Origin: Neoarius graeffei
Lineage: Eukaryota > Chordata > Actinopteri > Siluriformes > Ariidae
Length of the DNA stretch: 64,000 nucleotides
Direction of reading: 5' to 3'
Assembly (NCBI RefSeq): GCF_027579695.1
Contig: NC_083582.1
Coordinates: 511,878 to 575,877 of the forward strand
The notes below the pieces were generated by a model that was given only the letters and a program-made list of their open reading frames with translations, had not been told where the DNA came from and did no database searches. Position numbers and translations under genes: made by a program. Every line of letters starts with the position of its first letter. Within the stretch, counting starts at the first letter, position 1. Below are positions 16,877 through 39,078 of this stretch, one piece after another.

Positions 16877-17000
16877 TACCTTATATTGTATTAATTGTAG
16901 ATTGCTATTTTTTTGTCATGATGTAGATGTTTTTACAGATTTGGGTCCAGAAGTCGGCACCGGGAGTAATGGACAAATCTGATTCCCAAAAAATGTATTA
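16877..17000 (-). pseudogene. L1-like LINE, continuation beyond Gypsy-B
   Basis: The minus strand encodes SDLSITPGADFWTQICKN, typical of an L1 ORF2 C-terminal region. It leads directly into the part at 11486-11940 when Gypsy-B is removed. Bases 16877-16881 are the second TSD copy. The 5' end near 17000 is approximate. Bases 17001-17225 are AT-rich and hold nothing I can identify. Confidence 0.6.
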
Positions 17001-19453: not shown

Positions 19454-21063
19454 CAGTGGTGCTTGAAAGTTTGTGAACCCTTTAGAATTTTCTATATTTC
19501 TGCATAAATATGACCTAAAACATCATCAGATTTTCACACAAGTCCTAAAAGTAGATAAAGAGAACCCAGTTAAACAAATGAGACAAAAATATTATACTTG
19601 GTCATTTATTTATTGAGGAAAATGATCCAATATTACATATCTGTGAGTGGCAAAAGTATGTGAACCTTTGCATTCAGTATCTGGTGTGAGCCCCTTGTGC
19701 AGCAATAACTGCAACTAAACGTTTGCGGTAATTGTTGATCAGTCCTGCACACTGGCTTGGAGGAATTTTAGCCCGTTCCTCCGTACAGAACAGCTTCAAC
19801 TCTGGGATGTTGGTGGGTTTCCTCACATGAACTGCTCACTTCAGGTCCTTCCACAACATTTCCATTGGATTAAGGTCAGGACTTTGACTTGGCCATTCCA
19901 AAACATTAACTTTATTCTTCTTTAACCATTCTTTGGTAGAATGACTTGTGTGCTTAGGGTCGTTGTCTTGCTGCATGACCCACCTTCTCTTGAGATTCAG
20001 TTCATGGACAGATGTCCTGACATTTTCCTTTAGAATTTGCTGGTATAATTCAGAATTCATTGTTCCATCAATGATGGCAAGCCGTCCTGGCCCAGATGCA
20101 GTAAAACAGGCCCAAACCATGATACTACCACCACCATGTTTCACAGATGGGATAAGGTTCTTATGCTGGAATGCAGTGTTTTCCTTTCTCCAAACATAAC
20201 GCTTCTCATTTAAACCAAAAAGTTCTATTTTGGTCTCATCTGTCCACAAAACATTTTCCCAATAGCCTTCTGGCTTGTCCACGTGATCTTTAGCAAACTG
20301 CAGACAAGCAGCAATGTTCTTTATGGAGAGCAGTGGCCTTCTCCTTGCAACCCTGCCATGCACACCATTGTTGTTCAGTGTTCTCCTGATGGTGGACTCA
20401 TGAACATTAACATTAGCCAATGTGAGAGAGGCCTTCAGTTGCTTAGAAGTTACCCTGGGGTCCTTTGTGACCTCACCGACTATTACACGCCTTGCTCTTG
20501 GAGTGATCTTTGTTGGTCGACCACTCCTGGGGAGGGTAACAATGGTCTTGAATTTCCTCCATTTGTACACAATCTGTCTGACTGTGGATTGGTGGAGTCC
20601 AAACTCTTTAGAGATGGTTTTGGAACCTTTTCCAGCCTGATGAGCATCAACAATGCTTTTTCTGAGCTCCTCAGAAATCTCCTTTGTTCGTGTCATGATA
20701 CACTTCCACAAACATGTGTTGTGAAGATCAGACTTTGATAGATCCCTGTTCTTTAAATAAAACAGGGTGCTCACTCACACCTGATTGTCATCCCATTGAT
20801 TGAAAACACCTGACTCTAATTTCACCTTCAAATTAACTGCTAATCCTAGAGGTTCACATACTTTTGCCACTCACAGATATGTAATATTGGATCATTTTCC
20901 TCAATAAATAAATGAGCAAGTATAATATTTTTGTCTCATTTGTTTAACTGGGTTCTCTTTATATACTTTTAGGACTTGTGTGAAAATCTGATGATGTTTT
21001 AGGTCATATTTATGCAGAAATATCAAAAATTCTAAAGGGTTCACAAACTTTCAAGCACCACTG
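19454..21063 (-). mobile_element. Tc1-3: complete Tc1-like element (1610 bp)
   Basis: The ends CAGTGGTGCTTGAAAG and its complement are flanked by TA at 19452-19453 and 21064-21065. Terminal inverted repeats extend about 210 bp and are highly similar. The single gene is on the minus strand. Of the three Tc1 elements here it is the only one with both ends, so its ends could still be mobilised by an active transposase supplied elsewhere. Confidence 0.93.
19674..20696 (-). pseudogene. Tc1-3 transposase, one premature stop
   Basis: It starts at ATG 20696 (MTRTKEISEELRK) with paired helix-turn-helix DNA-binding domains (SKTISKEFGLHQSTV, HESTIRRTLNNNG) and a GRPTK-type hook. The catalytic residues are all present: Asp in WTDETK, Asp in QQDNDPKH, Glu in NPMEMLW. 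The frame closes at a TGA (19836-19838) just after WKDLK. Recognisable C-terminal residues (KPTNIPELK, RKRLVAVIAAQGAHTRY) continue to a natural stop at 19674. The only visible lesion is that stop. Confidence 0.88.
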
Positions 21064-21242
21064 TAAGGAGAGAGAGAGCAGAGGAAGAGAGCTCTCTCCC
21101 CAACCAGACGACTTGTGTGTGTGCGCGTGTGTGGCTGGGAGTGTGAATACTACACTGAAAAGTGCAAAATAAAGAGTTTTTGGGAACTCAGTTTTGGCTT
21201 GCCATCCTTCTGTGCTCCACCCACCCATCCGAATTGCAATAG

Positions 21243-21260
21243 TGGTGCCAAAACCCAGGA
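21243..21260 (+). promoter_or_regulatory. Primer binding site of Gypsy-C (tRNA-Phe, diverged)
   Basis: TGGTGCCAAAACCCAGGA starts one base after the LTR. It differs by two bases from the tRNA-Phe site of Gypsy-B. Confidence 0.75.
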
Positions 21261-21285
21261 TCGGAGCACAGAGAAGAACAGCCCC

Positions 21286-22167
21286 ATGGAGTCCTTCCCC
21301 TTCGCAGACCTGGTCCACACTCTCGCCACGGCCCAGCAGAGCCAGCACCAGGCACTAGTTGCCCTCTGGAAGGAGCAGGAGCAAAGGTTCGAGGCCCTGG
21401 TGCTGGCACAGCAGGAAGATTGTCAGGCATTCCGGCACCTCCTCGCATCGGTGGGGTCCACCACCTCCACTGCCGCGGGCCCTCCCCACCTCACCCTAAC
21501 GACGATGGGCCTGCACGACGACCCCGAGGCCTTCCTCACGCTCTTTGAGCAGGCAGCAGAGGCCTCAGGCTGGCCGGTGGAACAGCGCGCAGTGCACCTC
21601 CTCCCCCTGCTAATGGGCGAGGCGCAGCTGGCCGCGCGACAGCTCCCCGCTGACAGCCGGCTGGTCTACACAGACCTCCGCCGGGCCATCCTCCAGCTTG
21701 TGGGGCACACCCCCAAACAACACCGACAGTGCTTCCGCACTCTGCGCCTGGAGGAAATCGGCTGGCCATTCGCGTTTGGCCAGCAACTCCGGGACGCCTG
21801 CTGGCGGTGGCTGAGGGCTGATAACCACGACGCCGTGGGAATTGTCGATCTGGTGGTACTGGAACAGTTCATCGCCCGACTACCTGAAGAGACCGCGGAG
21901 TGGGTCCAGTGCTATCGCCCGGCGTCACTGGATCAGGCCATTGAGATGGCGGAGGACCATTTGGTGGCTGTTCCGACAGCAGGACAGCAGATCTCCTCTT
22001 CTCCCCCCTCCTCTCTCTCTCTCTCCCCCCCTCCCCTTCTGTGTCTTGTCCTTGCCCTGTTCCCCCACTGTGGAGGTGGAGGCCGGCTCCACCCCAGCTG
22101 GCCCGCTGCACCCACTGTGCCCTCCCGTTTCCTGCTTCCATGTCTGTCTCTTCCCCCCCTCAGGTGA
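21286..22167 (+). CDS. gag: Gypsy-C Gag (matrix/capsid with SCAN-like domain)
   Basis: The start ATG at 21286 gives MESFPFADLVHTL, aligned with Gypsy-B Gag. The product has about 293 residues: a Gln-rich coiled N-terminus, a capsid core (LLPLLMGEAQLAARQL) and a SCAN-like segment (PFAFGQQLRDACWRWLR...EQFIARLPEE). The C-terminal tail is Ser/Pro-rich. The frame is open to the stop at 22165-22167 and overlaps the -1 pol frame (22041 onward) by about 126 bases, exactly as in Gypsy-B. Confidence 0.85.
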   Translation: MESFPFADLVHTLATAQQSQHQALVALWKEQEQRFEALVLAQQEDCQAFRHLLASVGSTTSTAAGPPHLTLTTMGLHDDPEAFLTLFEQAAEASGWPVEQRAVHLLPLLMGEAQLAARQLPADSRLVYTDLRRAILQLVGHTPKQHRQCFRTLRLEEIGWPFAFGQQLRDACWRWLRADNHDAVGIVDLVVLEQFIARLPEETAEWVQCYRPASLDQAIEMAEDHLVAVPTAGQQISSSPPSSLSLSPPPLLCLVLALFPHCGGGGRLHPSWPAAPTVPSRFLLPCLSLPPLR

Positions 22168-23742
22168 GTGAGCCCCAGAGCACTGGTGCAGAGAGAAAGC
22201 CCGGGCCGGTTTGCTGGCGCTGCGGGAAGCCGGGGCACCTCCAGCAGCAATGCTCGGCAATGGAGGTGGGCACGGTGGTCCGGATCCCCGACGCACCAGG
22301 AGCCGCCCTTGATTGGGCTGGAGCATATCTCATACCGGTGAGTGTCCAAGGGGATACATATCAGGTGTTGGTGGACTCTGGCTGTAATCAGACCTCAATC
22401 CACCAAAGCCTGGTGCAAGACAAGGCATTGGGGGGAGCACAATTGGTGAAGGTGTTGTGTGTGCACATGGATGTTCACAACTACCCTTTAGTGTCGGTCT
22501 ACATTCTTTTTCGAGGGGAGAAATTTAGTGTAAAGGCGGCGGTTAATCCTCGCCTTACCCATTCGATAATCTTGGGGACTGATTGGCTAGGATTTCGTGA
22601 GTTAATGACTCATTTAGTGAAAAATGGGGCCTGCCATAGTTCAGCAGGGGGAAGTCCTGGTGTGGCATTGGCGGGAGCAGATGTCACAGATCCGTCTACA
22701 TCATCTCTGTGTCAGAGCGAGGAGCTGCAGGCTCCTCCTCCTTCTCTCAGGGAATCCCTCACGGATTTCCCATTAGAACAGTCACGGGACGAGACTCTGC
22801 GGCATGCGTTTGACCAAGTGAGAGTAATCGATGGTCAAATGCTCCAGCCAAACGCCACCCCGTCCTTCCCCTATTTCTCCATTATGAGAGATAGATTATA
22901 CCGAGTGACGCAGAACACTCAGACTAAGGAGCCGACTACACAGCTTTTGATTCCAAAGAGCTGCTGGGAATTTATATTCCAGGCAGCTCACTTTAATCCC
23001 ATTGCTGGACACTTGGGGCAGGATAAGACATTAGCCCAAATAATGGCATGGTTCTATTGGCCAGGGATTCGCAGCGATGTCCGTAGGTGGTGTACGGCAT
23101 GCCGCGAATGCCAGTTAGTAAATCCAACAGCCATTCAAAAAGCGCCTTTGCGCCCTCTGCCATTAATCAAGACCCCATTCAAAAGAATTGGGATAGATCT
23201 CGTCGGGCCATTAGATCGGTCAACACGAGGGTATTGCTTTATTTTAGTTCTGGTGGACTATGCAACGCGATACCCGGAAGCAGTGCCTCTTCGCAATATC
23301 TCAGCAGGCAGTATTGCAGAGGCGCTCTTCCACGTCATCTCCCAAGTTGGAATCCCCAAAGAGATTCTGACTGATCAAGGCACCTCGTTTATGTCACGCA
23401 CACTGAGCGAACTGTATGGTTTATTGGGAATTAAGCCGATCCGCACCAGCGTTTATCACCCACAAATGGACAGTTTAGTCAAATGGTTCAATCGCACACT
23501 CAAGAATATAATTAAAAAGTTTGTTCGCGAGGACACACGCAATTGGGATAAATGGCTCAAACCCCTGTTATTTGCAGTGCGAGAGGTCCCACAAGCCTCC
23601 ACGGGGTTCTCCCCATTAGAGTTATTATATGGGCGTAAGCCGTGCGGCATCCTAGATGTACTGTGAGAAAATTGGGAGGAGGGACCTTCCCCGAGCAAAA
23701 ATGAAATTCAGTACGTTATGGACCTGTGCACAAAACTCCACA
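22041..23742 (+). pseudogene. pol: Gypsy-C NC-protease-integrase (first part of pol)
   Basis: This frame is -1 relative to gag. It holds the zinc knuckle CWRCGKPGHLQQQC, protease VDSGCNQTS and integrase (GHLGQDKTLAQIM, CTACRECQ, GIDLVGPLD, TDQGTSF, SLVKWFNRT). The third catalytic position of integrase reads K where Gypsy-B has E (GLVERFN), so the triad is lost. A TGA at 23664-23666 closes the frame, and integrase sequence then runs to the ERV-L insertion point. Confidence 0.85.
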
Positions 23743-23746
23743 CACC

Positions 23747-24604
23747 TGTTGGTAACTCGCCAGCGCCCCCTATAACGATCCCACAATTCCTTGCGCGCTC
23801 CACCCGGATGTGATGTAAAGTGGAACTGCTTTAACTGTATCGAGAGCGCCTCGATTCGCTCTCTCATGTTCTGACTACTGGAGTGGTCGGACGGACTGTA
23901 GGCACGCAAGCTACAGTGTTGAGACTAACCGCTATTGTCTGAGAACAGCCTGTTCAAATTAGTTTCGGCCGAACTTTTGAACGACCCGCTAAGTTTCAGC
24001 GATATAGTGGTTTCGATTCTAAACCTTTGCAAAGTTTAACTACAGTTAAGTAGTTTTCCACGCTAAGAGGCATTTGCGGACAGCTTCGCTCCTCTCAGCC
24101 TTTTTCTCGTCGACGCATCACCGGAGGTTTCTCCTGAAGCACCGTGGGCCAGCTAGGCCTTCATCTCCCTGCTTCGTTAGCCGCGGTTGGACGCAACGCG
24201 CCGCTAACCTCCTCTCCTCGGACTGCGACCCTCAGCGCGGACATCGGAGAAAGAACTTCCATCGCATTGAGTAGGCACTTGGGCAAATTTTTAATTTGTA
24301 GCTTATTCAGATGGTTGTTAGGGTCATGTTTAAGCTTTGAGCTATTTAGCATACCCGCTCAGACACGGAAGGTGTTTGTTTGTTTTTATTGTTTGTTTGT
24401 TTGTTTTTATTGTTTGTTTTGGTTCTGTTTTTTTTCTTTGAACTTGTTAGACAGGGTATCTTGCATGATATCTTTCCTTAACTCCATTGCTAGCTTCCCT
24501 ATCTGATTAGCAGCGCAGCGACAAGTTTGTTATTTTAAGCTCCGAGGCTAGACCGCTACAAGGCCTAGTTCTCTCCATCCAACACATATACACACTCTCT
24601 CACA

Positions 24605-24649
<45 letters not shown>

Positions 24650-25538
24650 GTTGAGTTCTTTGCCTAGATAGTCTGTTGGAAATTGTTGTTAAGTGCAGTG
24701 TTTGGATCCAGCTGTAGCGTGGTCAGATTCTCCTTAGCAACTTATTGCTAGCTACCTCAGGGTGATACGCTAGCTGGTAGGCTTGTGTTCTCGACTAGGC
24801 CTGCAGGCGCCATTTTTCCGACGCCATTTTGATACCTTCCTCATTGAGTTACCTGTGATACGACACCTAGGCACTGACCGCCATTTTGTTTAAGCATTGC
24901 CAGAGTGGCTAGCATTAGCATCTGCCCACAGATACCTACACAAAGCACACATTAGCCACAGAGCTAATCCTTTGTTCTATTTAGCTAACATTCCTTTGTT
25001 TTAGCTAACATTCCTTTGTTTTAGCTAACGACAAGCTAGGTCACACACACACACACACACACGCATCGGCTTGCCCTAGCCTCACACACACGCACACACA
25101 AGGGATTCTTTTCTTTTTTTTTTTCCTTCTCTCTTTCTCTCTCTCTTTCCCTCAAATTTATAGTCCAGGTGTAATTGTTCCATTGTTTTGTCTTGTTATT
25201 ACCTTTGCTGACATTGAATGTATTTTGAGTTTATTATTATTAGTGAGTAGTAGACAAATAAAAGCTAATAAAATTGAATTGCATTTTACTTGTTCCTGTT
25301 GTTTATTCACAAGGTCAACTATTTAGAACTCCTTTTTCCTTCAGAATTTAGCTTTTGTATACAACTGGGTTTCCCATCTAATACAGAGCTACCATTAATC
25401 TTGAATGTAACCATTCACGGTGAGTGTTAAGATTAATAATTTAAGATTTTATGAGACTGATCTTTATTTATAAATTGATTAATTTAATTATCAATTATTA
25501 CATAATTTATAATTTAATTAATCCCAATTAAACCTACA
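23747..25538 (+). repeat. 5' LTR of ERV-L (1792 bp)
   Basis: It opens TGTTGGTAACTC and ends AACCTACA. Features include a CT microsatellite (about 24610-24647), three CGCCATTTT motifs (24808, 24822, 24879), tandem TTAGCTAACATTCCTTTGTT units near 24980-25029, CA repeats near 25042-25062 and AATAAA at 25257-25262. A 120-codon frame inside it is low-complexity and is not called a gene. Confidence 0.95.
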
Positions 25539-25970
25539 TTAAAGTGGTGCCTCGTGTGAGGACTAGTTTAATGACCTTGTGAATTTCTCAACAATAACTT
25601 GTAAACTGCTGTATACCCAAAATCAACTGCCAAGGTATAACACAGATGACTTTAATGGTGAATCATTAACAGTGTGTTAATCACAGAACTGAAATTCAGC
25701 TGCCAACCACAGTTAGCTGATAAACTGGTTTAATTGATTAGTACATTAGAGTAATATCTAATCCAAGTACTTAATTAATATTATTAATAATAATAATCAT
25801 TATTGTTAACTAATTATTAATTGAGCTAATTAATACAAGTGAAACATTAGTGAAAACAAAGTAGCTAAGAAACCACATCAATTATTTAGCAACTTGGATT
25901 AAATTAAATTCTAACCTAATCAACCCCTAGTATTAATTTCCTTTAAGTTAATTAATACATTTCGAACAAA
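25539..25970 (+). promoter_or_regulatory. ERV-L leader with atypical primer site
   Basis: After the LTR come TTAAAG and then TGGTGCCTCGTGTGAGGA (25545-25562), which begins with the TGG expected of a primer site. The first seven bases would fit tRNA-His or tRNA-Phe, but the remainder matches no vertebrate tRNA 3' end I know, and the 6-base offset from the LTR is unusual. The rest of the leader is AT-rich. AAG|GTATAA near 25636 is a weak donor candidate for env splicing. Confidence 0.5.
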
Positions 25971-27776
25971 ATGTCGCGTTCCCCATCAAGGGACTCAGAA
26001 GGGCCCCTCCTCTCTCTCTTCGACGTTGTAGGCGATTTAGGCCAAGTCCCGGAGGATAGGAGAAATTACTTCTGTGATCTGGACCAAAAGGCTCGCTTTG
26101 ATGAAATACACATAGCCGTTAGGGAACTTAAGGAGCGTACTATGACTCTTCCAGAAGGGCTACCCAAATTGTTCATGATCTACTATAAGGAAATGGAACA
26201 TGTGTGTATGACCCTCGAACAAGAGAAAAGAACACTAAAACGACAACTGGCCGAAGCTCAAAGGAGAGCAGAAAGCGCGGAGAGTAGCCTCGTGGGCCTG
26301 AGAGCCACACAAGATGAACTAAAGCGCGAAATAGAATACCTCAGAGAAGAAGTGACGCAAGCACGTCGCTCAGATGAGGGATCGGCCAAACCCTCCCAAG
26401 AACAGAGTTCCGCTCTGGAGGAGGAAGAACCTGAGCTTAGAACGGTAGATCAGACACCGCACTCAAGCTCAACTCGCGTGAAAGTCGCGCGATCGCCACC
26501 TCGTGGCGCTGGGAGTTTTTACTTTACTCCCCACTACACCCCCTCGCGCTTCAATATCGCTGCAGCCTCTAGCCCGCAGAAAACGCCGCGCTACGTACCC
26601 TCAGACTCCTCTGACGGAGAGGCCGCCTCCAAGCCGAAACGCAGACATAGGCGATATGAGAGCAGCTCAAATAGCGAAGACAGCGAGGACCCCTACGGGT
26701 CAAAATCAAAACGCCTCGTCGCAGAACGCAAAACTAGGATCCGCCAAATCGACGTCCTTGCGAAAGACATAGAGCGTTTTGAGCCGGAAAATCATAGACA
26801 CCGAAGCGTTAATGATTATTTCCGGGAAATCGAGCGTAGCCTCCTGGACCTGCCAGAGGCTACATCGCATGAAAAGGCCAGACTAGTCTGGAAAACTTTA
26901 GGTAGTGGCGTACGAGCATTCGTTGAGACCTTACCGCAGTCAGTCCTCGACAACTACAAGAAGATACGCAAGTACTTGAAAGAGGAATACTCGTTGTACG
27001 AGGACGAGACTGCTGCGACGATGGGTGCCATTCTGATCAGACAGAAACGAAGCGAACACCCTCGCGAGTACTACCGTCGGCTCCGTGCAGCGTACTTTCA
27101 GGGCAGAAGCGAGCCCGGGCTAGAGGAAGATCGCAACTTCAAGTCCCTCTTCCTCCATAACCTTCACCCGTGCATCCGTAACCAAGTAACACTCGCGTGT
27201 CGCCAGCGCCCCCATACTATGAGAGAAATGCGTCGCACCGCACAACTAACGTGGGAGATGTTCGTCCGACCCACAGACCGCCACGAGGACGATCCCAGAG
27301 TCCTCAGCCTATATGAGCAGGAAGATCAGTCCTTAGGCCTAGAAGGGGGTGAAGCCCCAAACCGCGGGCCCCCTTGGGCGAACCCAAACCCCGGCCACCA
27401 GACGTCGAGTCAACCCAAAGGTAACTGGAAAGTTCGACAAGCTGGAGCCAAGGGGGAACAGGGCCCCAACGCCAAAGGGCAAGGTAACCGCAAACCTGGC
27501 AGTCACGGCCCTAAATCTCAGAATAGCGGACAGTCAAGGCCCCATCGCAACTCCTCTCGAAGGGAGCGGAGCCCTAAGCTAGCTACCGCTAAACAAGCCA
27601 ACCAAGAGCCGCTTGGGATGGCAGAACTGAGGGCTGAATTAGCACGGATTAAACAAGCCAACCAAGAGCCGCTTGGGATGGCAGAATTGAGGACCGAATT
27701 AGCACGGGTTAAACAACTGCTGAGCAATAAGAACAGGAAGGGTAAGCCGAGCAAGGACAGGGACGAACCGTCAGCA
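25971..27776 (+). CDS. gag: ERV-L Gag polyprotein
   Basis: A 602-residue structural precursor starting ATG TCG CGT (no Gly at position 2, so no N-myristoylation motif). Residues about 80-135 form a charged coiled coil (EQEKRTLKRQLAEAQRRAES). A Ser/Pro/acidic linker follows. The capsid-like part is at about 250-440, with an MHR-like stretch near 355-375 (QKRSEHPREYYRRLRAAY). The C-terminus is rich in Gly, Asn, Lys, Arg and Gln with no CCHC knuckle, recalling the basic boxes of spumaviral Gag. Two 20-residue repeats (NQEPLGMAELR type) end the protein. The UGA stop at 27777-27779 is in frame with pol. Confidence 0.88.
27591..27710 (+). repeat. 60-bp tandem duplication in ERV-L gag
   Basis: Two adjacent 60-bp units (27591-27650, 27651-27710) begin AAACAAGCCAACCAAGAGCC and differ by a handful of bases. 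Each encodes 20 residues with a Leu/Ile heptad-like pattern. Confidence 0.93.
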
Positions 27777-27831
27777 TGACTAGGCCGGGACCCATCCCCA
27801 CCACCACCGCGTGTCTACCTCGTGGGGTGGG
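27777..27831 (+). promoter_or_regulatory. Gag-Pol stop-codon readthrough signal
   Basis: The gag stop is TGA followed by CTAGG (27777-27784), the UGA-CUAG context known for efficient readthrough in animals and alphaviruses. Pol continues in the same frame. Starting 11 bases after the stop, CCCATCCCCAC (27791-27801) pairs with GTGGGGTGGG (27822-27831), leaving a single bulged T, to form a 10-bp GC-rich hairpin. This predicts a Gag-Pol fusion made by suppression, as in gammaretroviruses. The signal's activity is inference. Confidence 0.75.
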
Positions 27832-30800
27832 GAAAGGACCCCTGCCCAATAGGCAGCGATGAGTTGAAACCACCCCCTCCGTTAGTGAAGCCTGACCCGC
27901 AGGATGCACCCCTGACGCAGTTTCTTGGAGATTTGGTTAGGAAAGGCAACGCCAAGCGTATCTATACCCCAGTGGTGGTAGAAGGCAACGTTTCCCTCCA
28001 AGCTCTCTTGGATACCGGGTCAGAAATCACCCTGATGTGTTCCAAAGTCTTTGCAGAGGTTTCTGATGCGCGGCGCGCGCAAGGTAGACCCATCAGAACC
28101 GAACGTTGTGACGTCAACTTGGTTAGCTTCACCCAGAATCAAGCCCCAGTAACAACCATTGCATGGTTAGAACTCACCTTCCAGGGCATGTCCATCACTC
28201 ACCCCACTTACATCTGCTCTGTCGGGGTAGAACCGTTCCTCATTGGCCAAGACCTACTAGATAGGCTAGCGCCCCTCATTGACTGTCGTCGTGGGCAACT
28301 GTGGGCCCAGGTCGCGTCCCCACAGACCCCAGATCCTCGTCGTCACGATCGAGCCTGTTGCGATGAAGTTAGCGTGGAGGCTACTCCACTGATAGCTGAG
28401 TCAGGGCAGGTCCCCGAGAACCTCGAGACCACTCCGCTCCACCCTGAGCCGAGTCAAGACGCACCAAACTCAACCGACACTCCTCTCAACCGCAACGCGC
28501 TTGATGGCCACCCGTCTTTCCTTTGCTTTCTTGGCGAATCTGCCCCAACCAGGTACTACCCCTGGATATCTGGCAACATTATTGTCAACGGCGTCACGGC
28601 ACCTGGCGTCAGGTTAGCGCTTTGGTCAGAGAAGTCAGCCATCAGCCAAACGTGGTTCGACATAGTGCGTCAGAGCACTCCTTCCCCTGTCTTTGTGCAG
28701 AAGAGCCACCGGCTACTGTCAGCCGAACAACCCCAGAGCCCCATCAAAGCCACAGGCGTCTGCGCCGTGTCGCTCGCCATCGGTCAGAGAGAATTCCTTC
28801 ATTTCTTGAGTGTCGTCCCCGGACTTCCTGACCCACTGGTCATTGGGGCAGACATCTTGGTCAGACTGGGAGCCCAACTGGACCTAGTCAACCGGGTCAT
28901 CTGGACCCAAGCCGACGCTGCTAAGCACCCGTTCCAAGCTGACCCGGAACAAATGCGGTCAGGACAAACGATTCCCCAAGCCTGCCATGTCGCTAGCGAA
29001 TTTGACATTGTCATTCCCGCTAGGACTGCTGGTTCCCCTCTTAAGCTGGTCATCATGAAAGACCAACAGTTTCGTAGCTCCCAGGCGTTCTTCCAGCCTC
29101 TCAGATTCTTCATGGAGCTCGATTTAGCCGTGTGTGGGACTCCGCTGCTTGAAGTGAGTCATCGTTCCGCTTACCTCCTGGTTCAAAACTCCACGCGGGA
29201 CGCCATCACGATCCCCGCCCGTCGGCCTTTAGGCCTTCTGATAGACCAGGCATTCCATGACTTTGAACTCACCATTCCAGTCATCGGTGAGCTGCCAACG
29301 CCGGACACTCATTCCGATCCAGTGGAACCTCCCTGGATCACTCTTCCTTTCCACATGATCCACGTCGAACCTCACGACATGCTTCGCGACGAGCGCATAG
29401 TCATGACCAGAACTGACACCCCGAAACACATGCTGGTGTACGCTCTTGCCACGCAATCGAGCAACGACACCCCTGCAACTGAGGTCGTCGATTCAGCTCT
29501 AGGTGAACCGTACCCAGGCTTCGAACGAGAAGTTCAACAACAGCTGGTGAAAGCTGACAGCCTGACCACGGACACCCAGAGACGACAGCTCCGTGAACTG
29601 TTCTACGACTTCAAGGCGATCTGGGCGCGAGATTCTAATGACTGCGGAGTCACGGACATCCACACCGTCCGAATCCCAACAGATCCGAACGCTCCACCGA
29701 CGTTCGTGCGGCAATACAAAATCCCGTTAGCCGCATACGACTCAATACAAGAAACACTGGACACTCTGCTGGAAAAGCAGATCATTCGTGAGTGTAACTC
29801 GACTTACAACTCCCCCTTGTGGCCGGTGCTGAAACCGAACGGCAAGTGGCGTCTCACCATTGACTATAGGCAGCTGAACAAGCAAGTGCCCTTGTCAAGA
29901 TGGCCCATGATCCATCTGGATCAAGAACTTGCCAAGGTGAAGGGTGCAAAGTTCTTCTCCACCGCCGACGTGGCGAGTGGATTCTGGACCATGCGCGTGG
30001 ATCCAGCTGACCAGCACAAGCTGGCCTTTTCCTTTGGGAACCGCCAGCTAACTTTCAACCGATGTCCGTTCGGCTACGCGAACTCCCCCGCTGAATTCAA
30101 CATCTTCTTGCATAAGGCAATGAGCGATGCCGCAGCTCGTGGCAACTTGATCTATGTCGATGACATCCTCATTAGGTCACAGACTTTTGATGCACACCTC
30201 GAAGAGATACGCCATGTTCTGTCTCAGCTGTCCAGAGCAGGAGCGAAGCTCTCTGTCACCAAAGGGCAGTGGTGTCGCACCAAAGTTGAATACGTTGGAC
30301 TGTGCGTCGGGCCAGATGGCATTGAACCCCAGTCAGGGAGGGTGCGGGCTATCCAAGACATCAAAGCCCCATCCAACGTACCCGAACTCAGGAGCTTCTT
30401 AGGGGTCTGCAACTACTCCCGACAGTTCATTGAGGACTACGCGGACATAGCACGACCGCTCACCGAGCTCCTCCGGAAGGATAAACCCTTCCAGTGGAGT
30501 GACCCTCAAGAACTCGCGTTCAAGAGCATGAAGCAGAAGCTCTGCTCCGCTCCCTGCCTCGCGTATCCCGACAAAGACAAACCGTTCTTCTTGGAGGCTA
30601 GTTTCTCCACCCACTGCCTGAGCGCTGCACTGTCACAGCAGCATGACAAAGATCGCCGTGTCGTAGCATACGCCAGTCGGCCCCTCAGTGCTGTGGAGTT
30701 TAAATTTTCAGACTGCGAAAAAGCCCTGCTGGCCACGGTCTGGGCCGTTGAACACTTTCGCAGTTACATTGGTGGCCAGAAGGCAGTGATAGAGACCAAT

Positions 30801-32984
30801 CATCAACCGGTCTCGTTCTTGAACAGCCAGAGGCTGAGAGAGGGAAGAGTTTCGAACAGTCGCATCGCAGCTTGGATGATGGCACTACAGGGCTACGACG
30901 TCGAGGTGAAGTACGCCCAGAACCACAAGATGGCGCTTGGCCGAGGCCTGGCGGAATGCCAGCATTGCGACTGCGAGAATAGTCCGGATCAAACCGAACT
31001 AACAACCGTACCTGCTCTCCCCTCCGACCACCACTACTATGACGAGAACGTCTGCAAAGACCTCCCCACCGCTTACATAGATGGATGCTCATTCCATCAT
31101 GAACGCAAAGTCCAAGCCGGTGTCGGTATCGTATGGGCGAACGGCCCTATACAAGGGAAATACCAACATCGACTCGGGGCTAAGACTAGCCAATATGCGG
31201 AGGTAGCAGCCGTGCTCATCGTCCTGCAACAAGCTGCCCGTGAGAGCATCAAGCGGTTAGTCCTCTGCTCTGATTCAAATTATGCCAGGCATAGCTTCGT
31301 CTCACACTTTCCCTCGTGGAAGGTGCGGGACATGAAAAACGCAAGGGGCAAGGAAGTGAAACACTCCGAACTCTTCCTAGCATGCGATCGACTCGTAACC
31401 GAACAGGGAATGTGCGTCTATTGGAAGAAGGTGAAGGGACATTCTCAAGTCCCAGGACCTGACAAAGTCGGTAACGATGAGGCAGATGGCCTCGCCAAAG
31501 CGGGAGCCGTGGACGGCCCCCTTTGGGAATTCCAGCCGTCATGGCTTCCCGAGACGCCACGCCATAACGTAACCGCGATTACTCGCCGACAGGCTAGAGC
31601 AGGTCAAACTGACGCAGTACCCCAAGCAGGAACCGTGCAACTCGGCCGACTGCCCCAGGACGCCGACCTGGTGTCTATGCAGGAAAGGGATCCCGTGATC
31701 CACCAAATCCGTAAGTTCCTTGCGGACCCCGTGGCGTCCCCAATTTCCCCACAAGAGTTGCAACAGTCCCGAGACTTAAACCACCTTCACAATCTCAAAA
31801 ACGGCTTAAAACTCGAGAAAGGACTCCTGGTGTACACACCACGCAACCAGGGACCTCCCCGGTGGGTCGTGCCCACAGATCATAGGGGGGTCATGTTGCA
31901 GTACGCTCACGACAGCCCGTGCGGGGGCCATAGGAACGCTCAGGCGACCTACCAGACACTCCAACAGATTGTCTATTGGCCCTTCATGATTCAGGACGTT
32001 ACCGAGTATGTTAAAGGGTGCTTGATTTGCTGCCAATTCCGACCAGCCCAACCGTTGAACCGCGCCCCACTGCAAAGCAAAGGCATCTCATTCCCCTGGT
32101 CTAATCTCCAGATAGACTGGGTCGGACCAGTGCCGAAATCGGCTCGAGGTAATAAGTATCTCCTGACCGTCACTTGCGCGTTCACGAAGTGGGTGGAATG
32201 CTTGCCCGCCCCAAACGAAACCGCAGAGACCACCGCTCTCCTTCTTATGAACCATGTGTTCAGCCGTTGGGGCTTGCCCCTATCCATTGATTCCGACCGA
32301 GGTACTCATTTCACCGCAGAGGTCATGAGAGTGTTGTGGGAGATGCTCGGAGTCGAGGCAAAATTCCACATCGCGTATCATCCTCAGTCTTCTGGTCAGG
32401 TCGAACGCGCCAACCAAACCATCGTGAGCATGCTTCGCAAGTATGTTAGCCACCATGGCAAAGATTGGGACATCAAACTCCCTCTGGTGCTGATGGCCAT
32501 TCGGTCCACTCCTCACCGCACCACCGGAGTCACCCCGTTCGAAATGATGACTGGCCGTGAAATGGTTCTTCCCTTACACCTCCTCTACCGACCAGAGGAC
32601 CTAAGCGTCGCCACTGCGTACACCGCACACCAGTACGTCACCGACTTGCAACGCCACTTGCAGGCCACGTTTGCGTGGGCCCAGGAACACCTCGAAAAGA
32701 GTGCGAAAGGACAGAAAGCTTACTACGACAGAAAGGCGACACACCGTGAGTACGAAGTAGGCGACAGAGTCCTATACTTCAATTTCACCAAACCGGTAGG
32801 AGTAGCCAGAAAATTCTTACCCCGTTGGTCCGGCCCTTTCGAAATCGTCGGTAAACTGTCCCCCGTCGCCTACCGCATCAAAACTTCGAAGCCCAGCCAG
32901 GCGCCTTCGTATAGATGGGCCCATAGCAACCAAATAAAGCTTTTTGAGCAGTCCACACTCCATAGGGGGGTGGACAAACAATAA
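27780..32984 (+). CDS. pol: ERV-L Pol polyprotein (PR, PR-like, RT, dead RH, RH, IN)
   Basis: The frame is open from the gag stop to 32984 with no ATG near its start, consistent with readthrough. Numbered from 27822: protease DTGS at 64, then a second protease-like domain (about 245-355) that has lost the catalytic Asp. Next is a small beta-rich segment ([10 protein letters not shown]). RT has YVDD at 778-781. A gypsy-type RNase H follows without its Asp residues ([12 protein letters not shown]). A second RNase H has an intact-looking D-E-D-D set (YIDG at about 1087, YAEV, CSDS, NDEAD). Integrase has a zinc finger (HRNAQ...CLICCQ) and the core D1432, D1492, E1528 with 35-residue spacing. No stop or frameshift was seen. 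Confidence 0.9.
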
Positions 32985-33077
32985 GTTATAGCCTGCCCAA
33001 CTTAGTTGCATGCCTCTCAATCCATAAGCGTGCATCTATAAGTAACCACCCTCGTTACCACTCAAATCGGAATAACA

Positions 33078-33095
33078 AACTCCTGTATGTTGCAG
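33078..33095 (+). promoter_or_regulatory. ERV-L env splice acceptor
   Basis: The sequence CTCCTGTATGTTGCAG ends with AG at 33094-33095, one base before the env ATG at 33097. Pol ends 110 bases upstream, so env needs either splicing or internal entry. This acceptor places the start codon at the very front of the spliced exon. Confidence 0.65.
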
Positions 33096-33096
33096 A

Positions 33097-34839
33097 ATGG
33101 CCCCTCTCTGGATCCTCGGCATCTTCCTAGTCCTGCAGACCACATTGGCCGGTAACATAGTGGAACCAGGTCCGCCGAGTGGCATTGTTCTCCAAGATGC
33201 CCCAGGACTGCTCCTCACCAATTGCCGCGTCCATACCCAGCGCGTGTACACCCGCCTCGATCCTTGGGACGTGTACCGTAAGCATTTTAGATCGCCCACA
33301 CAAACAAACCTCGAAACCGGGCCTGACTCCGAGATTGGGTCCAACATCGAACACGCCAAGCGTACCACAGTTCACATGCTCGAACAGTTACAGAAGTTCA
33401 TAGTCACTGAGGAGGAACTCAGCGGCAAAACACGCCCTAAACGGTTCCTCGGAGGACTACTTACTGCTGCATCCGCCATTGGCTCTCTGTTCTCAATGGG
33501 CCTCTCTGCCGTTAACACCGTTAGCCTAACCGCGGTCAAACGAGAAATGAACATTCTTAAGGAAGAAATGCCAGAAATCCAGGGTAGACTACTAACTCAA
33601 CAGGAGGAGCTGCAGGGCCTAGGCAAAACCCTGCAGGGAACCATACTAACCGTTAACATGCATTCTACATTAATCAAGAACACAGTACATGCCGTAGACA
33701 GGCTAGCAGCAATCATGAGAAGCGAAGTCAAGTACGTCCGAGTAATCCGAGACCTAATGCAGGACCTGATGAGAGAAGTAAGTAGCTCTCTCAGCACCCT
33801 GAGTGGAGGTAAAATCCCACCATATTTGATACCCCTCAGCATGGTTGACAGCATACTCCGATCTACTACCACGACTAACGTTTACTCATCACAGATTCAT
33901 CTGGCTTATAGTCTTGGCAGTGCTATCCCCATTTTTGTGAACCCTCAAAACCTAGAAATAGGCTTCATCCTCAATCTCCCCGTTATTGAACGGCAAAACA
34001 TATACAGAATCAAATCTGTCCTTAATGTAGGTTTCTGGAACAACGACGTACACGTACGTTTGCAGACACCTTCCACCATAGCCTATCACGATGACAACCC
34101 CTCTATCTACCTCGTCCCTAATTTAGACATGTGCACCTCTACCAAAGATATCCACTGGGTCTGCCCCAGCAATCCCTTTATCCGAGACACCACAGACCGT
34201 CTCTGTGGATTGACAAAAGTCCCCGAGCAGAAGTGTGCAGGCAAATTGTCTATTAAAGATGAAGGAATAGGAACTAGAGTAGAAAGAGCTGGTAATCGGT
34301 GGCTAATCAACACTCCCCAAACTGAGATTCTGGTATCATATGATCAACATAACACTGCCACTAGAATGAAGATACCTAACGAAACCTCTCTCCTAAGTGT
34401 CCCACTAGGAGCCACTGTTCACGTGGGTGACATCACCCTCCATCACCTTAGCGCGGACCAGTATGAGACCGAGATAGAAATGCCCGATGCCTTCCCAGGT
34501 CACGAACTTGAGATAAACTCCACCCTCCAAGCACAACTACTGCTGGAAGGGACCAAAACCGTGCAATTCGATCTTAAGCCCACTGGCATCGCTACCACTT
34601 TCTTGAATAACCGCGCAAACCCTTCGTCCGATCAAGGATCTTTAATAAGCCGAATTGCGCTGGGATTTCTAGCTGGCGGTTGGGTTATCACAGTCTTCAT
34701 AGCCATCACTCTACATAGGTACATACTGACACTACACCGCAAACTGGACAAAATGATCTACGCACCTGAGAAATTAGATCGTGGCATTGTCCGATTCTCC
34801 ATCAGGCCTAAGGCCTCCACTAACTTTCTTGAAGAGTAG
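33097..34839 (+). CDS. env: ERV-L envelope, class I F-type fusion glycoprotein layout
   Basis: The 580-residue ORF begins with a signal peptide (MAPLWILGIFLVLQTTLA). A short N-terminal subunit ends at the furin-type site RPKR (113-116). It is followed at once by a hydrophobic Gly/Ala-rich fusion-peptide-like stretch (FLGGLLTAASAIGSLFSM) and a long heptad region (about 140-235). A Cys-containing ectodomain with N-glycosylation sites follows, then a membrane anchor (about 520-541) and a 39-residue tail. There is no CX6CC motif. The small-subunit/long-fusion-subunit plan is that of paramyxovirus F-like proteins, as reported for lokiretroviral Env. The ORF is intact. Confidence 0.85.
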   Translation: MAPLWILGIFLVLQTTLAGNIVEPGPPSGIVLQDAPGLLLTNCRVHTQRVYTRLDPWDVYRKHFRSPTQTNLETGPDSEIGSNIEHAKRTTVHMLEQLQKFIVTEEELSGKTRPKRFLGGLLTAASAIGSLFSMGLSAVNTVSLTAVKREMNILKEEMPEIQGRLLTQQEELQGLGKTLQGTILTVNMHSTLIKNTVHAVDRLAAIMRSEVKYVRVIRDLMQDLMREVSSSLSTLSGGKIPPYLIPLSMVDSILRSTTTTNVYSSQIHLAYSLGSAIPIFVNPQNLEIGFILNLPVIERQNIYRIKSVLNVGFWNNDVHVRLQTPSTIAYHDDNPSIYLVPNLDMCTSTKDIHWVCPSNPFIRDTTDRLCGLTKVPEQKCAGKLSIKDEGIGTRVERAGNRWLINTPQTEILVSYDQHNTATRMKIPNETSLLSVPLGATVHVGDITLHHLSADQYETEIEMPDAFPGHELEINSTLQAQLLLEGTKTVQFDLKPTGIATTFLNNRANPSSDQGSLISRIALGFLAGGWVITVFIAITLHRYILTLHRKLDKMIYAPEKLDRGIVRFSIRPKASTNFLEE

Positions 34840-35193
34840 GCTTGCTAACACGCTAACTAACCCCTCTTTTCCATTTTCCTTTATGGAGTTTTGATTATTT
34901 TTGTTTGCTGTGTGAAATATTGTATGTAGAAGGTAGTTAAGTAGCCATAGTGTAATTGTTTTCATGTCCAAGTGCCTATGCTTTCATGCCCAAGTGCCTA
35001 TGCATCTTATGGACTGTATGAAATGAATTGAACTGTTGAACTGTGTCTGAAAGACTTTTCACAGAAAGGACCCTTGGAACTACCTCATTGTGGAACTACC
35101 TCATTGTGGATTACTAGGGACCGTGGGCCGCAGACTAAACACCATGTGCCCATAGGGTATCACTCCTTTCAGCGCCTATGGCCAAGGGGGGAA
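34840..35193 (+). promoter_or_regulatory. ERV-L 3' untranslated region with polypurine tract
   Basis: No gene was seen. The segment contains direct repeats (CCAAGTGCCTATGC twice near 34968-35002, and GGAACTACCTCATTGT twice near 35076-35106). It ends in the polypurine tract AAGGGGGGAA (35184-35193) immediately before the 3' LTR. Confidence 0.8.
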
Positions 35194-36051
35194 TGTTGGT
35201 AACTCGCCAGCGCCCCCTATAACGATCCCACAATTCCTTGCGCGCTCCACCCGGATGTGATGTAAAGTGGAACTGCTTTAACTGTATCGAGAGCGCCTCG
35301 ATTCGCTCTCTCATGTTCTGACTACTGGAGTGGTCGGACGGACTGTAGGCACGCAAGCTACAGTGTTGAGACTAACCGCTATTGTCTGAGAACAGCCTGT
35401 TCAAATTAGTTTCGGCCGAACTTTTGAACGACCCGCTAAGTTTCAGCGATATAGTGGTTTCGATTCTAAACCTTTGCAAAGTTTAACTACAGTTAAGTAG
35501 TTTTCCACGCTAAGAGGCATTTGCGGACAGCTTCGCTCCTCTCAGCCTTTTTCTCGTCGACGCATCACCGGAGGTTTCTCCTGAAGCACCGTGGGCCAGC
35601 TAGGCCTTCATCTCCCTGCTTCGTTAGCCGCGGTTGGACGCAACGCGCCGCTAACCTCCTCTCCTCGGACTGCGACCCTCAGCGCGGACATCGGAGAAAG
35701 AACTTCCATCGCATTGAGTAGGCACTTGGGCAAATTTTTAATTTGTAGCTTATTCAGATGGTTGTTAGGGTCATGTTTAAGCTTTGAGCTATTTAGCATA
35801 CCCGCTCAGACACGGAAGGTGTTTGTTTGTTTTTATTGTTTGTTTGTTTGTTTTTATTGTTTGTTTTGGTTCTGTTTTTTTTCTTTGAACTTGTTAGACA
35901 GGGTATCTTGCATGATATCTTTCCTTAACTCCATTGCTAGCTTCCCTATCTGATTAGCAGCGCAGCGACAAGTTTGTTATTTTAAGCTCCGAGGCTAGAC
36001 CGCTACAAGGCCTAGTTCTCTCCATCCAACACATATACACACTCTCTCACA

Positions 36052-36092
<41 letters not shown>

Positions 36093-36981
36093 GTTGAGTT
36101 CTTTGCCTAGATAGTCTGTTGGAAATTGTTGTTAAGTGCAGTGTTTGGATCCAGCTGTAGCGTGGTCAGATTCTCCTTAGCAACTTATTGCTAGCTACCT
36201 CAGGGTGATACGCTAGCTGGTAGGCTTGTGTTCTCGACTAGGCCTGCAGGCGCCATTTTTCCGACGCCATTTTGATACCTTCCTCATTGAGTTACCTGTG
36301 ATACGACACCTAGGCACTGACCGCCATTTTGTTTAAGCATTGCCAGAGTGGCTAGCATTAGCATCTGCCCACAGATACCTACACAAAGCACACATTAGCC
36401 ACAGAGCTAATCCTTTGTTCTATTTAGCTAACATTCCTTTGTTTTAGCTAACATTCCTTTGTTTTAGCTAACGACAAGCTAGGTCACACACACACACACA
36501 CACACGCATCGGCTTGCCCTAGCCTCACACACACGCACACACAAGGGATTCTTTTCTTTTTTTTTTTCCTTCTCTCTTTCTCTCTCTCTTTCCCTCAAAT
36601 TTATAGTCCAGGTGTAATTGTTCCATTGTTTTGTCTTGTTATTACCTTTGCTGACATTGAATGTATTTTGAGTTTATTATTATTAGTGAGTAGTAGACAA
36701 ATAAAAGCTAATAAAATTGAATTGCATTTTACTTGTTCCTGTTGTTTATTCACAAGGTCAACTATTTAGAACTCCTTTTTCCTTCAGAATTTAGCTTTTG
36801 TATACAACTGGGTTTCCCATCTAATACAGAGCTACCATTAATCTTGAATGTAACCATTCACGGTGAGTGTTAAGATTAATAATTTAAGATTTTATGAGAC
36901 TGATCTTTATTTATAAATTGATTAATTTAATTATCAATTATTACATAATTTATAATTTAATTAATCCCAATTAAACCTACA
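35194..36981 (+). repeat. 3' LTR of ERV-L (1788 bp)
   Basis: Same sequence as 23747-25538 apart from a CT repeat that is 4 bp shorter, as far as visual comparison shows. It ends AACCTACA and is followed by the TSD copy CACC. Confidence 0.95.
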
Positions 36982-36985
36982 CACC

Positions 36986-38766
36986 TAACCCAGGAGAATT
37001 TGCGGCAGGCCCAAGAACGGCAAATCCGCCTGTATGACAGGGGTATGTGCCTTAGGGAGTTTGCACTGGGAGATAAAGTACTTGTACTCTTGCCCACATC
37101 GAGCTCCAAATTGATCGCCAAGTGGCAAGGACCCTTTGAGGTCACACGGCAAGTCAGGGACGTCAACTATGAGGTGAGGTGAACGGACAGGGGTGGGGCA
37201 CTACAGATTTACCACCTCAATCTGCTCAGACTCTGGAACGAGGAGGTCCCCATAGTGTTGGTGTCAGTGGTTCTGGAGAAGGCGGAGCTGGGGCCGGAGG
37301 TTCAAAAGGGAACATTGACATCGCGTACCTCTCCGGTCCCCTGTGGAGACCACCTCTCCCCGACCCAACTCACGGAGGTTGCCCAGTTGCAGACCGAATT
37401 TTCGGACATGTTCTCCCCCCTGCCCGGCCGCACCAGCCTCATAGAATACCACATTGAGATGCCCCCAGGGGTGGTAGTGCACAGCCGCCCTTACAGGCTA
37501 CCTGAACACAAGAAAAAAGTGGTTTGGGAAGAACCCAAGGCAATGCTCGAAATGGGCATCGTTGAGGAGTCCCACAGTGACTGGAGCAGCCCAGTGGTCT
37601 TGGTTCCCAAGGCCGACGGGTCGGTCCGGTTCTGTGTAGACTATAGAAAAGTCAATGCGGTGTCTAAATTCGATGCATACCCAATGCCTCATATTGACGA
37701 GTTGCTGGATCAACTAGGCACGGCTCGCTTTTACTTGACACTGGATTTGACAAAGGGTTATTGGCAGATCCCCTTGACTCCACTATCCAAAGAAAAAATG
37801 GCCTTTTCCACACCGTTTGGCTTATACTAATTTGTTACACTTCCTTTTGGGCTGTTTGGGGTGCCCGCTACGTTCCAGCGGCTTATGGACAGGGTCCTCC
37901 GCCCCCACACCACCTATGCGGCCACGTACTTAGATGATATCATAAGCTATAGTAATGACTGGCCACGGCATTTAGAACACCTAAGGGCCATCCTTAGGTC
38001 GCTGAGGCAAGCGGGTCTCATGGCCAACCCGAAGAAGTGTGCGATTGGAAGTGCGGTATCTGGGCTTCCACTTGGGCAATGGGCAGGTGCATCCCCAAAT
38101 TAACAAGACAGCAGCGATTGCGGCCTGCCTGAGGCCCAAGACCAAAAAGGGGGTGAGACAGTTCCTGGGGTTGGCTGGCTACTATCGTAGGTTTATACCT
38201 AATTATTCGGATGTCACCAGCCCGCTGACTGATCTCACTAAAAAGGGGGCACCAGATCCGGTCCAGTGGACAGAGCAATGCCAGCGGGCTTTCTCGGAGG
38301 TGAAGGCTGCACTATGTGGGGGGCCACTGTTACACTCCCCTTGATTTTTCTCTCCCCTTTATGTTGCAGACGGATGCGTCGGACAGAGGGCTGGGGGCTG
38401 TTTTGTCCCAGGAAGTGGAGGGGGAGGACTATATCAGCAGAAAGCTGTCGGTGCATGAGGGGTGCTACAGCACCATCGAGAAAGGGTGCCTAGCCATCAA
38501 GTGGGCGGTCCTCACCCTCCACTACTACCTGCTGGGATGCCCTTTCACCCTCTGTTCGGAACACGCACCCCTTCAGTGGCTCCACCGCATGAAGGATGCC
38601 AATGTGCGGATCACCCGTTGGTATCTAGCACTCCAGCCCTTTAACTTCAAGTTGATCCACAGGCCGGGGGCACAGATGGTCATGGCGGACTTCCTCTCCT
38701 GTCAAGGGGGGGAGGAGTCGGCTGCAGGCTGGATGGCCGCCCGGCCTGAGTCAGGCGGTGGGGGTA
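36986..38766 (+). pseudogene. pol: Gypsy-C integrase tail, RT and RNase H (second part of pol)
   Basis: It resumes the pol frame after ERV-L with AQERQIRLYDRG, then LPTSSSKLIAKWQGPFEVT. RT (DGSVRFCVDYRKVN, LPFGLFGVPATFQ, YLDD at about 37933) and gypsy RNase H ([24 protein letters not shown]) follow. Breaks are a TGA at 37180, a stop at 37828-37830 (FGLY*), a frameshift near 38045 and a stop at 38341 (LLHSP*). The gene ends near the polypurine tract GGTGGGGGTA before the LTR at 38767. Confidence 0.87.
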
Positions 38767-39078
38767 TGTGGCAGCAGGGGTGTGGTCAAGCGTCGGTCTG
38801 TGACCAGAGGGCGGAGTCAGGGAAGGTAAGTGGCAGAATCACTGCACCTGATATCAGTTAACATGTGTTTGTGTGTCTTCCCCAGTGACCGCGCCTGATA
38901 TAAGGAGAGAGAGAGAGCAGAGGAAGAGAGCTCTCTCCCCAACCAGACGACTTGTGTGTGTGCGTGCGTGGCTGGGAGAGTGAATACTACACTGAAAAGT
39001 GCAAAATAAAGAGTTTTTGGGAACTCAGTTCTGGCCTGCTGTTCTTCTGTGCTCCACCCACCTGTCTGAATTGCAACA
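38767..39078 (+). repeat. 3' LTR of Gypsy-C (312 bp)
   Basis: TGTGGCAGCAGGGG...GAATTGCAACA, uninterrupted. It shows the CCTGATATAAGGAG promoter box into which Tc1-3 jumped in the other LTR, and an AATAAA at 39005-39010. Confidence 0.9.

What the first reader, a model, noticed from the sequence alone, without database searches (positions are those of the whole stretch)
23747..36981. Apparently intact, recently inserted lokiretrovirus-like provirus
The sequence shows paired 1.8-kb LTRs that differ by eye only in a CT repeat, a 4-bp TSD and open gag, pol and env. Such a provirus is young and could be expressed or polymorphic. Domain layout (F-like Env, two RNase H domains, no zinc knuckle) fits the lokiretrovirus lineage, known mainly from genomic copies. 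The family assignment is inference.
Basis: partly seen in the sequence, partly recalled or inferred. Interest (0 to 1): 0.88.

Follow-up and report, generated by a model that had tools for sequence, protein, structure and literature searches.

The report
Young lokiretrovirus with second, dead protease
A catfish chromosome carries a very recently inserted virus of the lokiretrovirus kind, one of a family of near-identical copies, whose enzyme polyprotein holds a second, degenerate protease domain that I did not find described, and whose gag and pol genes are parted by a stop codon of a known leaky type.

Summary
The LTRs (23747-25538, 35194-36981) differ by no substitution in 1788 aligned bases, only by 4 bases of a CT repeat; the TSD is CACC; gag, pol and env are open. 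The host is very probably the catfish Neoarius graeffei. Nine further loci sampled there have 1 LTR-LTR substitution in 15,862 bases.

The lokiretrovirus reading is supported: degenerate first and complete second RNase H, F-like Env (26 of 33 Envs scanned), no zinc knuckle, RT clade of 56 rows apart from gypsy and foamy rows.

Pol carries a second retropepsin domain behind the protease (profile E 2.6e-16, score 96; best of 50 shuffles 17) whose DTG reads ALW; it has one origin and is shared by teleost and frog relatives. Gag and pol share a frame and are parted by GCA-UGA-CUAG-GC, the efficient readthrough context of OPRL1, in 12 of 12 pieces seen; the review read lists UAG for retroviruses.

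I found neither in print, but the founding lokiretrovirus paper was not held. What the dead domain does is inference.

The parts
23743..23746 (.). target site duplication CACC, left copy
   Evidence: sequence
23747..25538 (+). 5' LTR, 1792 bp, TG...CA
   Evidence: 0 substitutions in 1788 aligned bases against the 3' LTR
25545..25561 (+). probable primer binding site TGGTGCCTCGTGTGAGG, 6 nt after the LTR; looks like elongator tRNA-Met (tRNA recalled, not checked)
   Evidence: sequence; the tRNA search did not complete
25971..27779 (+). gag, 602 aa, ends GCA TGA; no CCHC zinc knuckle; conserved core about residues 250-465
27590..27709 (+). 60-bp tandem duplication near the gag 3' end
27774..27785 (+). 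gag-pol junction GCA UGA CUAG GC, type II readthrough context, same frame on both sides
   Evidence: identical in 11 of 11 other junction pieces
27780..32984 (+). pol, 1734 codons open
27912..28325 (+). protease domain PR1 (Pol 45-182), DTG at Pol 78-80
28497..28934 (+). second, degenerate retropepsin domain (Pol 240-385), ALW at 280-282 in place of DTG
   Evidence: hhalign to PR1 E 2.6e-16
28947..29339 (+). beta domain (Pol 390-520), related to the spacer domain of gypsy Pol between protease and RT
   Evidence: hhalign E 5e-6, probability 86%; this stretch itself has no Pfam match and its profile no PDB match
29580..30500 (+). reverse transcriptase, YVDD at Pol 792-795
30495..30896 (+). first RNase H (tether), degenerate
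   Evidence: Pfam; sequence
31068..31508 (+). second RNase H, acidic residues present
   Evidence: Pfam; sequence
31869..32384 (+). integrase: zinc-binding H2C2 and DDE core with D-x35-E
33097..34839 (+). env, 580 aa, F-like; RPKR cleavage site at Env 113-116, hydrophobic segment about 515-540
35184..35193 (+). polypurine tract AAGGGGGGAA
   Evidence: sequence
35194..36981 (+). 3' LTR, 1788 bp
36982..36985 (.). target site duplication CACC, right copy
19314..39076 (+). interrupted SCAN/Gmr1-like gypsy element (integrase before RT) that holds the provirus; LTR 19314-19453 + 21068-21239 and 38763-39076
   Evidence: the name Gmr1 is recalled

Best explanation
An intact-looking, very recently integrated endogenous lokiretrovirus of an ariid catfish, one of many near-identical copies. 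Shown: paired near-identical LTRs, 4-bp TSD, open gag, pol and env, a degenerate and a complete RNase H, F-like Env, RT in the lokiretrovirus-like clade, and a protease followed by a homologous domain that lost the catalytic Asp. Inferred: full-length RNA makes Gag, and a minority of ribosomes read UGA-CUAG through to make Gag-Pol; PR1 acts as the usual homodimer; the second retropepsin domain keeps the fold but not catalysis and most likely serves as a structural or dimer-interface partner that sets when PR1 becomes active; Env is made from a spliced RNA, is cleaved at RPKR and fuses membranes in the paramyxovirus F manner.
For: LTRs, TSD, ORFs. Empty site in the neighbouring element copy. 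Age: (8 of 9 other loci with no LTR-LTR substitution, 1 with one). TSDs at 8 of 8 assessable other loci. RT clade. Env. Second retropepsin: score 96 against a maximum of 17 in 50 column shuffles; matches of either domain to the other two Pol stretches score 9-12; both domains in 54 of 82 proteins with any protease hit, of 210 held; the profiles were built from 25 aligned rows, many of them among these; 48 of 54 gap-free rows lack the Asp; second domains on one side of a branch 99/93; both kinds apart from gypsy proteases 98/92; closer to the window than the linker before it in 24 of 24 relatives. Readthrough: same frame; GCA-UGA-CUAG-GC in 12 of 12 pieces, window included; of 15 gag relatives printed (22 found) 9 end in Ala, 7 of them in Ser-Ala; the first Met of the pol frame, codon 86, lies behind DTG 78-80, so starting there could not give an active protease. 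Context known as efficient (PMC4132726, passages).
Against: 19 of the 210 proteins held match both gag and pol, so the stop is not universal or gene models bridge it. The stem-loop after the stop is not unusual (16 of 200 shuffles fold as well; 13 of 692 windows as low, 49 after GC adjustment). The second domain alone matches no Pfam family in the window, and PDB retropepsins only at E 0.28 or worse. Several relatives (P0024, P0043, P0044, P0056-P0060, P0073, P0074, P0161) show PR1 and no separate second domain. Env matches Fusion_gly below Pfam's cutoff in this copy, and a profile of 33 Envs found no F protein in the PDB. The copies are close kin, so their shared junction shows only that it is not private to this copy. 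No structure, expression or protein data.
Confidence: 0.75

Rival explanations
1. The UGA is a nonsense mutation that kills Pol, so the copies are moved in trans by a partner with an uninterrupted gag-pol frame.
For: 19 of 210 proteins held match both gag and pol in one predicted protein; the window's gag frame stops at 27777.
Against: 11 of 11 other junction pieces, from ten loci, carry the same stop and context; pol stays open for 1734 codons; 7 of 15 gag relatives printed end in Ser-Ala as here; UGA-CUAG is a proven leaky context (PMC4132726, passages).
Confidence: 0.07
2. Pol is made from its own spliced RNA as in foamy viruses (recalled), without readthrough.
For: Foamy RT is the best PDB match.
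Against: The first Met of the pol frame (codon 86) lies behind the protease active site, so an upstream start codon would have to be spliced in; gag and pol are in one frame at a leaky stop.
Confidence: 0.1
3. The second domain is not a retropepsin but an unrelated beta domain or a chance profile match.
For: No Pfam hit in the window, PDB hits only at E 0.28 or worse.
Against: E 2.6e-16 over 132 columns, 50 shuffles far below; same spacing of G, D, R, D and W at Pol 156-175 and 356-375; 3 of the 4 weak PDB hits are retropepsin-type (DDI1/DDI2 as retropepsin-like is recalled).
Confidence: 0.05
4. The element is an env-bearing gypsy, or lies inside foamy, gamma or epsilon ERVs.
For: Of canonical retroviruses only two foamy rows could be put in the tree.
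Against: Branches 97/86 and 100/99 separate it from foamy and gypsy rows; degenerate tether plus second RNase H; F-like Env.
Confidence: 0.05

Closest known systems
Lokiretroviruses (Wang and Han; described in PMC9040795, parts 1-2 of 4 read)
   Same: Vertebrate hosts, dual RNase H with degenerate tether, F-like Env, RT outside canonical retroviruses and gypsy.
   Different: In that paper 'protease' occurs once, for Odin Pol, and 'readthrough' and 'stop codon' not at all; no second protease domain or UGA-CUAG junction was seen. The founding lokiretrovirus paper was not held, so it may describe them.
BHIKHARI (Bik-1 to Bik-5) of zebrafish (PMC10996621, passages)
   Same: Endogenous relatives of lokiretroviruses with recent, near-identical insertions; Bik-1 Gag 617 aa against 602 here.
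   Different: The Bik-1 consensus holds a single long ORF, a Gag; this copy has gag, pol and env. Sequences not compared here.
Foamy viruses
   Same: Best PDB match of the RT (160 bits).
   Different: Separate branch of the RT tree.
Gamma- and epsilonretroviruses (readthrough)
   Same: One stop codon between gag and pol is read through.
   Different: They are listed with UAG, type III, and a pseudoknot or extended stem-loop (PMC3542737, passages); here UGA-CUAG, type II, whose UGA-CUA form is listed there for alphaviruses.
Odin retrotransposons of sea anemones (PMC9040795)
   Same: Dual RNase H; sister of lokiretroviruses.
   Different: No env.

Membership tests
Lokiretroviruses | dual RNase H, first one a degenerate tether | tested here: met
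   RT_RNaseH stretch 906-1039 with LEAS where Ty3-type enzymes have a catalytic Asp (comparison recalled); separate RNase_H 1097-1243 with its acidic residues
Lokiretroviruses | Env similar to Mononegavirales fusion glycoproteins | tested here: met
   26 of 33 Envs (window included) match PF00523, best 1e-8; this copy 3.5e-4, below the curated cutoff; the PDB profile search found none
Lokiretroviruses | RT sister to canonical retroviruses, outside gypsy | tested here: inconclusive
   apart from 44 gypsy (100/99) and 2 foamy rows (97/86); other canonical genera were not in the tree, and the program warns of a long branch at the foamy rows
Lokiretroviruses | RT groups with named lokiretrovirus references | not tested
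   no named reference sequence was available
Lokiretroviruses | host among lampreys, fishes, amphibians, reptiles | tested here: met
   host contig C13 has the same length as the Neoarius graeffei contig of P0122; relatives named in lamprey, teleosts, frogs
Intact young provirus | paired near-identical LTRs, TSD, open genes | tested here: met
Intact young provirus | insertion polymorphic or expressed | not testable with these tools
   no other individuals or RNA data
Type II stop readthrough | UGA followed by CUA or CGG | tested here: met
Type II stop readthrough | extended stem-loop about 8 nt 3' of the stop | tested here: inconclusive
   a stem-loop is predicted there but is not better than shuffles (z -1.47, 16 of 200) or other windows
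Retropepsin family (second domain) | sequence homology to a retropepsin | tested here: met
   to PR1 of the same family of elements; direct PDB matches not significant
Active aspartic protease (second domain) | D-T/S-G catalytic triad | tested here: not met
   ALW in the window; Asp absent in 48 of 54 gap-free rows

The most novel reading that the evidence does not exclude
Lokiretroviruses duplicated their protease once, before the teleost and amphibian lineages of the virus parted, and turned the second copy into a catalytically dead partner domain, as retroviruses did with RNase H and its tether; the dead copy occupies the PR1 dimer interface in the Gag-Pol precursor and times maturation. 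Together with an OPRL1-type leaky stop this would be a new way of controlling retroviral Gag-Pol.
Probability: 0.3. Interest if true: 0.8.

Novelty: new variant of a known kind. Interest (0 to 1): 0.6.

Why it matters
A family of very recent lokiretroviruses with at least one fully open copy makes a lineage close to the root of retroviruses testable: is it still moving, is it expressed, how is its Pol made? A conserved dead protease beside the live one would be a second case of duplicate-and-degrade in retroviral Pol after the RNase H tether, and would bear on how protease timing evolved. UGA-CUAG at a gag-pol junction would add a retrovirus lineage to the users of that readthrough signal.

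Tried and rejected
Nonsense-mutation reading of the UGA: not the main reading, because 12 of 12 pieces seen share it. Chance match of the second protease: rejected by shuffles and tree. A pattern search found DSG or DTA strings somewhere inside the second domain of P0007, P0033, P0051 and P0067; in the alignment they are not at the catalytic column. An RNA structure as stimulator: not supported beyond chance. The beta domain has no Pfam match in the window and no PDB match (single relatives had one Pfam hit at E 0.009 or weaker ones); it matches the gypsy spacer domain. The 122-aa frame in the LTR has no Pfam match. Troyka: no tether, 3-bp TSD and CG..CG ends (PMC12440569, parts 1-2 of 5 read), so not this. 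Three scans of IMG/VR found no relative. The founding lokiretrovirus paper is not held. A first comparison of LTR pairs gave up to 9 differences per pair because the pieces ran past the LTR ends; after trimming to the LTR the count is 0 or 1. Genome-wide counts of junctions, other lineages in the host and the tRNA-Met check were asked for and not answered.
Full report
What was checked. The two LTRs align over 1788 bases with no substitution and a single 4-base gap in a CT run; the provirus is flanked by CACC on both sides and begins and ends TG..CA. Gag, Pol and Env are open. The element sits inside a SCAN-domain gypsy element of the Gmr1 order (SCAN gag, knuckle, protease, integrase to the left; RT and RNase H to the right; the name Gmr1 is recalled). 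A second copy of that gypsy element lies uninterrupted by the provirus at about 11.9-16.9 kb on the minus strand, and the joined flanks run across its empty site at 87.5% identity over 1207 bp, except for an 8-base length difference at the site itself.

Host and age. The best Env match (99%, 4 differences in 580 residues) is annotated in Neoarius graeffei on a contig of 82,585,149 bases, and contig C13 of the window's own genome has exactly that length, so the host is very probably N. graeffei, family Ariidae. The first 600 bases of the LTR match at 40 scored places out of 742 candidates: 17 pairs about 11 kb apart (the window's included), one row of three on C27, and three single matches. I fetched LTRs of nine further plus-strand loci (eight pairs and the C27 row) and of one single match (C3:50475079); the other eight pairs and two single matches were not fetched as LTRs, though loci L001 and L002 of one of them came and were not used. 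Eight of nine loci have no LTR-LTR substitution and one has 1 in 1756; the sum is 1 in 15,862 aligned bases. Length differences in simple repeats were not counted, the C10 pieces ended short of the LTR end, and the aligner is lenient to gaps. Against the window's LTR the copies differ by 3-11 substitutions per about 1740-1780 bases, so they are not one duplicated segment. TSDs are present at 8 of 8 assessable loci, 4 bp in seven and readable as 5 bp in one (C18); C10 was not assessable. For the window pair alone, 0 in 1788 gives an upper 95% bound of about 0.0017 per site, below about 0.2-0.8 million years at an assumed 1-5e-9 per site and year. The sample favours close matches to the window, and gene conversion could lower the counts. 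Apart from the 801-base junction pieces the genes of the other copies were not examined; the pairs on C18 and C6 lie about 0.45 kb closer than most, so some copies may carry deletions.

Lokiretrovirus test. In a tree of 102 RT rows (105 collected, 3 identical ones dropped; hits of 225 query positions or fewer left out) the window lies with 55 other rows (named hosts include a lamprey, a cutthroat eel, an anchovy, carps, killifish and frogs) on one side of a branch with support 97/86; 44 gypsy rows (100/99) and two foamy rows lie outside. The labels follow the rank of the search hits, not prior names. The program warns of long branches, the foamy one among them. PDB scores of the RT run foamy 160, Ty3 123, MLV-type 105, HERV-K 47, HIV about 33-35 bits; the foamy match is longer at its start, and the identity of several chains is recalled. 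The first RNase H is degenerate and a second is complete. Env has RPKR, a following hydrophobic stretch, and F similarity in 26 of 33 Envs scanned. PMC9040795 (parts 1-2 of 4 read) names dual RNase H and F-like Env as lokiretrovirus features.

The second protease domain. Between the protease (Pol 45-182) and the RT lie about 400 residues. Residues 240-385 are homologous to the protease: hhalign probability 98.7%, E 2.6e-16, score 96, against a maximum of 17 in 50 column-shuffled controls and 9-12 for matches of either domain to the other two stretches. G, D, R, D and W near the end of the fold are spaced alike in both. The DTG of the first domain reads ALW in the second. Among the 210 proteins held, 82 have any protease hit and 54 have both domains, some in part only; the profiles were built from 25 rows that include many of them. 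At the catalytic column 48 of 54 gap-free rows (window included, one more row gapped) lack Asp; the six with Asp are P0051, P0054, P0065, P0066 and P0069, which read DLK, DLR or DLG, and P0080, an ordinary gypsy-type protease. In a tree of 75 protease domains (25 chosen relatives and the window, 26 gypsy rows) first and second domains together stand apart from gypsy proteases (98/92), and the second domains lie on one side of a branch (99/93), the frog-clade rows beside the teleost rows; the first domains do not form one group there, and columns are few. The second domain is closer to the window than the linker before it in 24 of 24 relatives (medians 33% against 12%). It is not universal in the predicted proteins: P0024, P0043 (lamprey), P0044, P0056-P0060, P0073, P0074 and P0161 show PR1 alone, and gene models may be cut. 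The distance from DTG to RT is 509-555 residues in P0002, P0007, P0016 and P0062, 259 in lamprey P0043, and under 300 in 29 of 30 gypsy rows with a motif (15 of 45 had none).

The beta domain. Pol 390-520 matches the spacer stretch of 26 gypsy Pols (E 5e-6, 86%), so the second protease, not this domain, looks like the addition.

The gag-pol junction. Gag ends GCA UGA and pol goes on in frame with CUA GGC. All 11 other junction pieces, from ten loci (C27 gives two), have the same 20 bases there and no other stop in frame within the piece; because the copies are close kin this shows only that the stop is not private to this copy. Of 15 gag relatives printed (22 found) nine end in Ala, seven in Ser-Ala, four of the seven from one killifish species, which suggests an older stop at that place; against it, 19 of the 210 proteins held match gag and pol in one predicted protein. 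PMC4132726 (passages) reports UGA-CUAG readthrough, about 31% in OPRL1, whose usual last codon is GCA and whose next bases are GC, and names alphaviruses, and two giant viruses, among the viruses with UGA-CUA. PMC3542737 (passages) lists gamma- and epsilonretroviruses with UAG. The predicted stem-loop after the stop is not unusual. The first Met of the pol frame, codon 86, lies behind the active site.

What is in print. Searches for lokiretrovirus, duplicated protease domain, catalytically inactive tandem retropepsin, two protease domains, pseudoprotease, lokiretroviruses with protease and UGA, CUAG, readthrough and gag-pol (68 papers, 15 listed, two opened) showed no report of either feature in lokiretroviruses. 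The library is open-access only, hits were mostly seen as listings, and the founding paper is missing.

Noticed in passing
window 11941-16880 (-): A copy of the same SCAN/Gmr1-like gypsy element without the provirus, LTRs about 99% alike (308 of 312); it serves as the empty-site reference.
   Followed up: yes
window 19454-21067: About 1.6 kb inserted in the 5' LTR of the gypsy element that hosts the provirus.
   Followed up: no
window 57198-64000: Another LTR element, 300-base repeat pieces 99% alike, with RT, RNase H, integrase and a TLV_coat-type Env: probably a gamma-like ERV.
   Followed up: partly
window 3751-5415: Open frame with TLV_coat Env similarity, and chromodomain gypsy Pol pieces at 7313-9559.
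   Followed up: no
window 25539-25544: Six bases lie between the 5' LTR end and the presumed primer binding site, more than the usual two or three (recalled).
   Followed up: no
G000:C27:78285-102896 (L011-L013): Three LTRs of the family in a row, as in an LTR-internal-LTR-internal-LTR array; recombination product or assembly effect.
   Followed up: partly
G000:C18 and C6 pairs: LTR spacing about 0.45 kb shorter than in most pairs, so these copies may carry internal deletions.
   Followed up: no
P0065, P0066: Basal relatives have one visible protease reading DLG in place of DTG, grouping weakly (86/82) with the second domains.
   Followed up: partly
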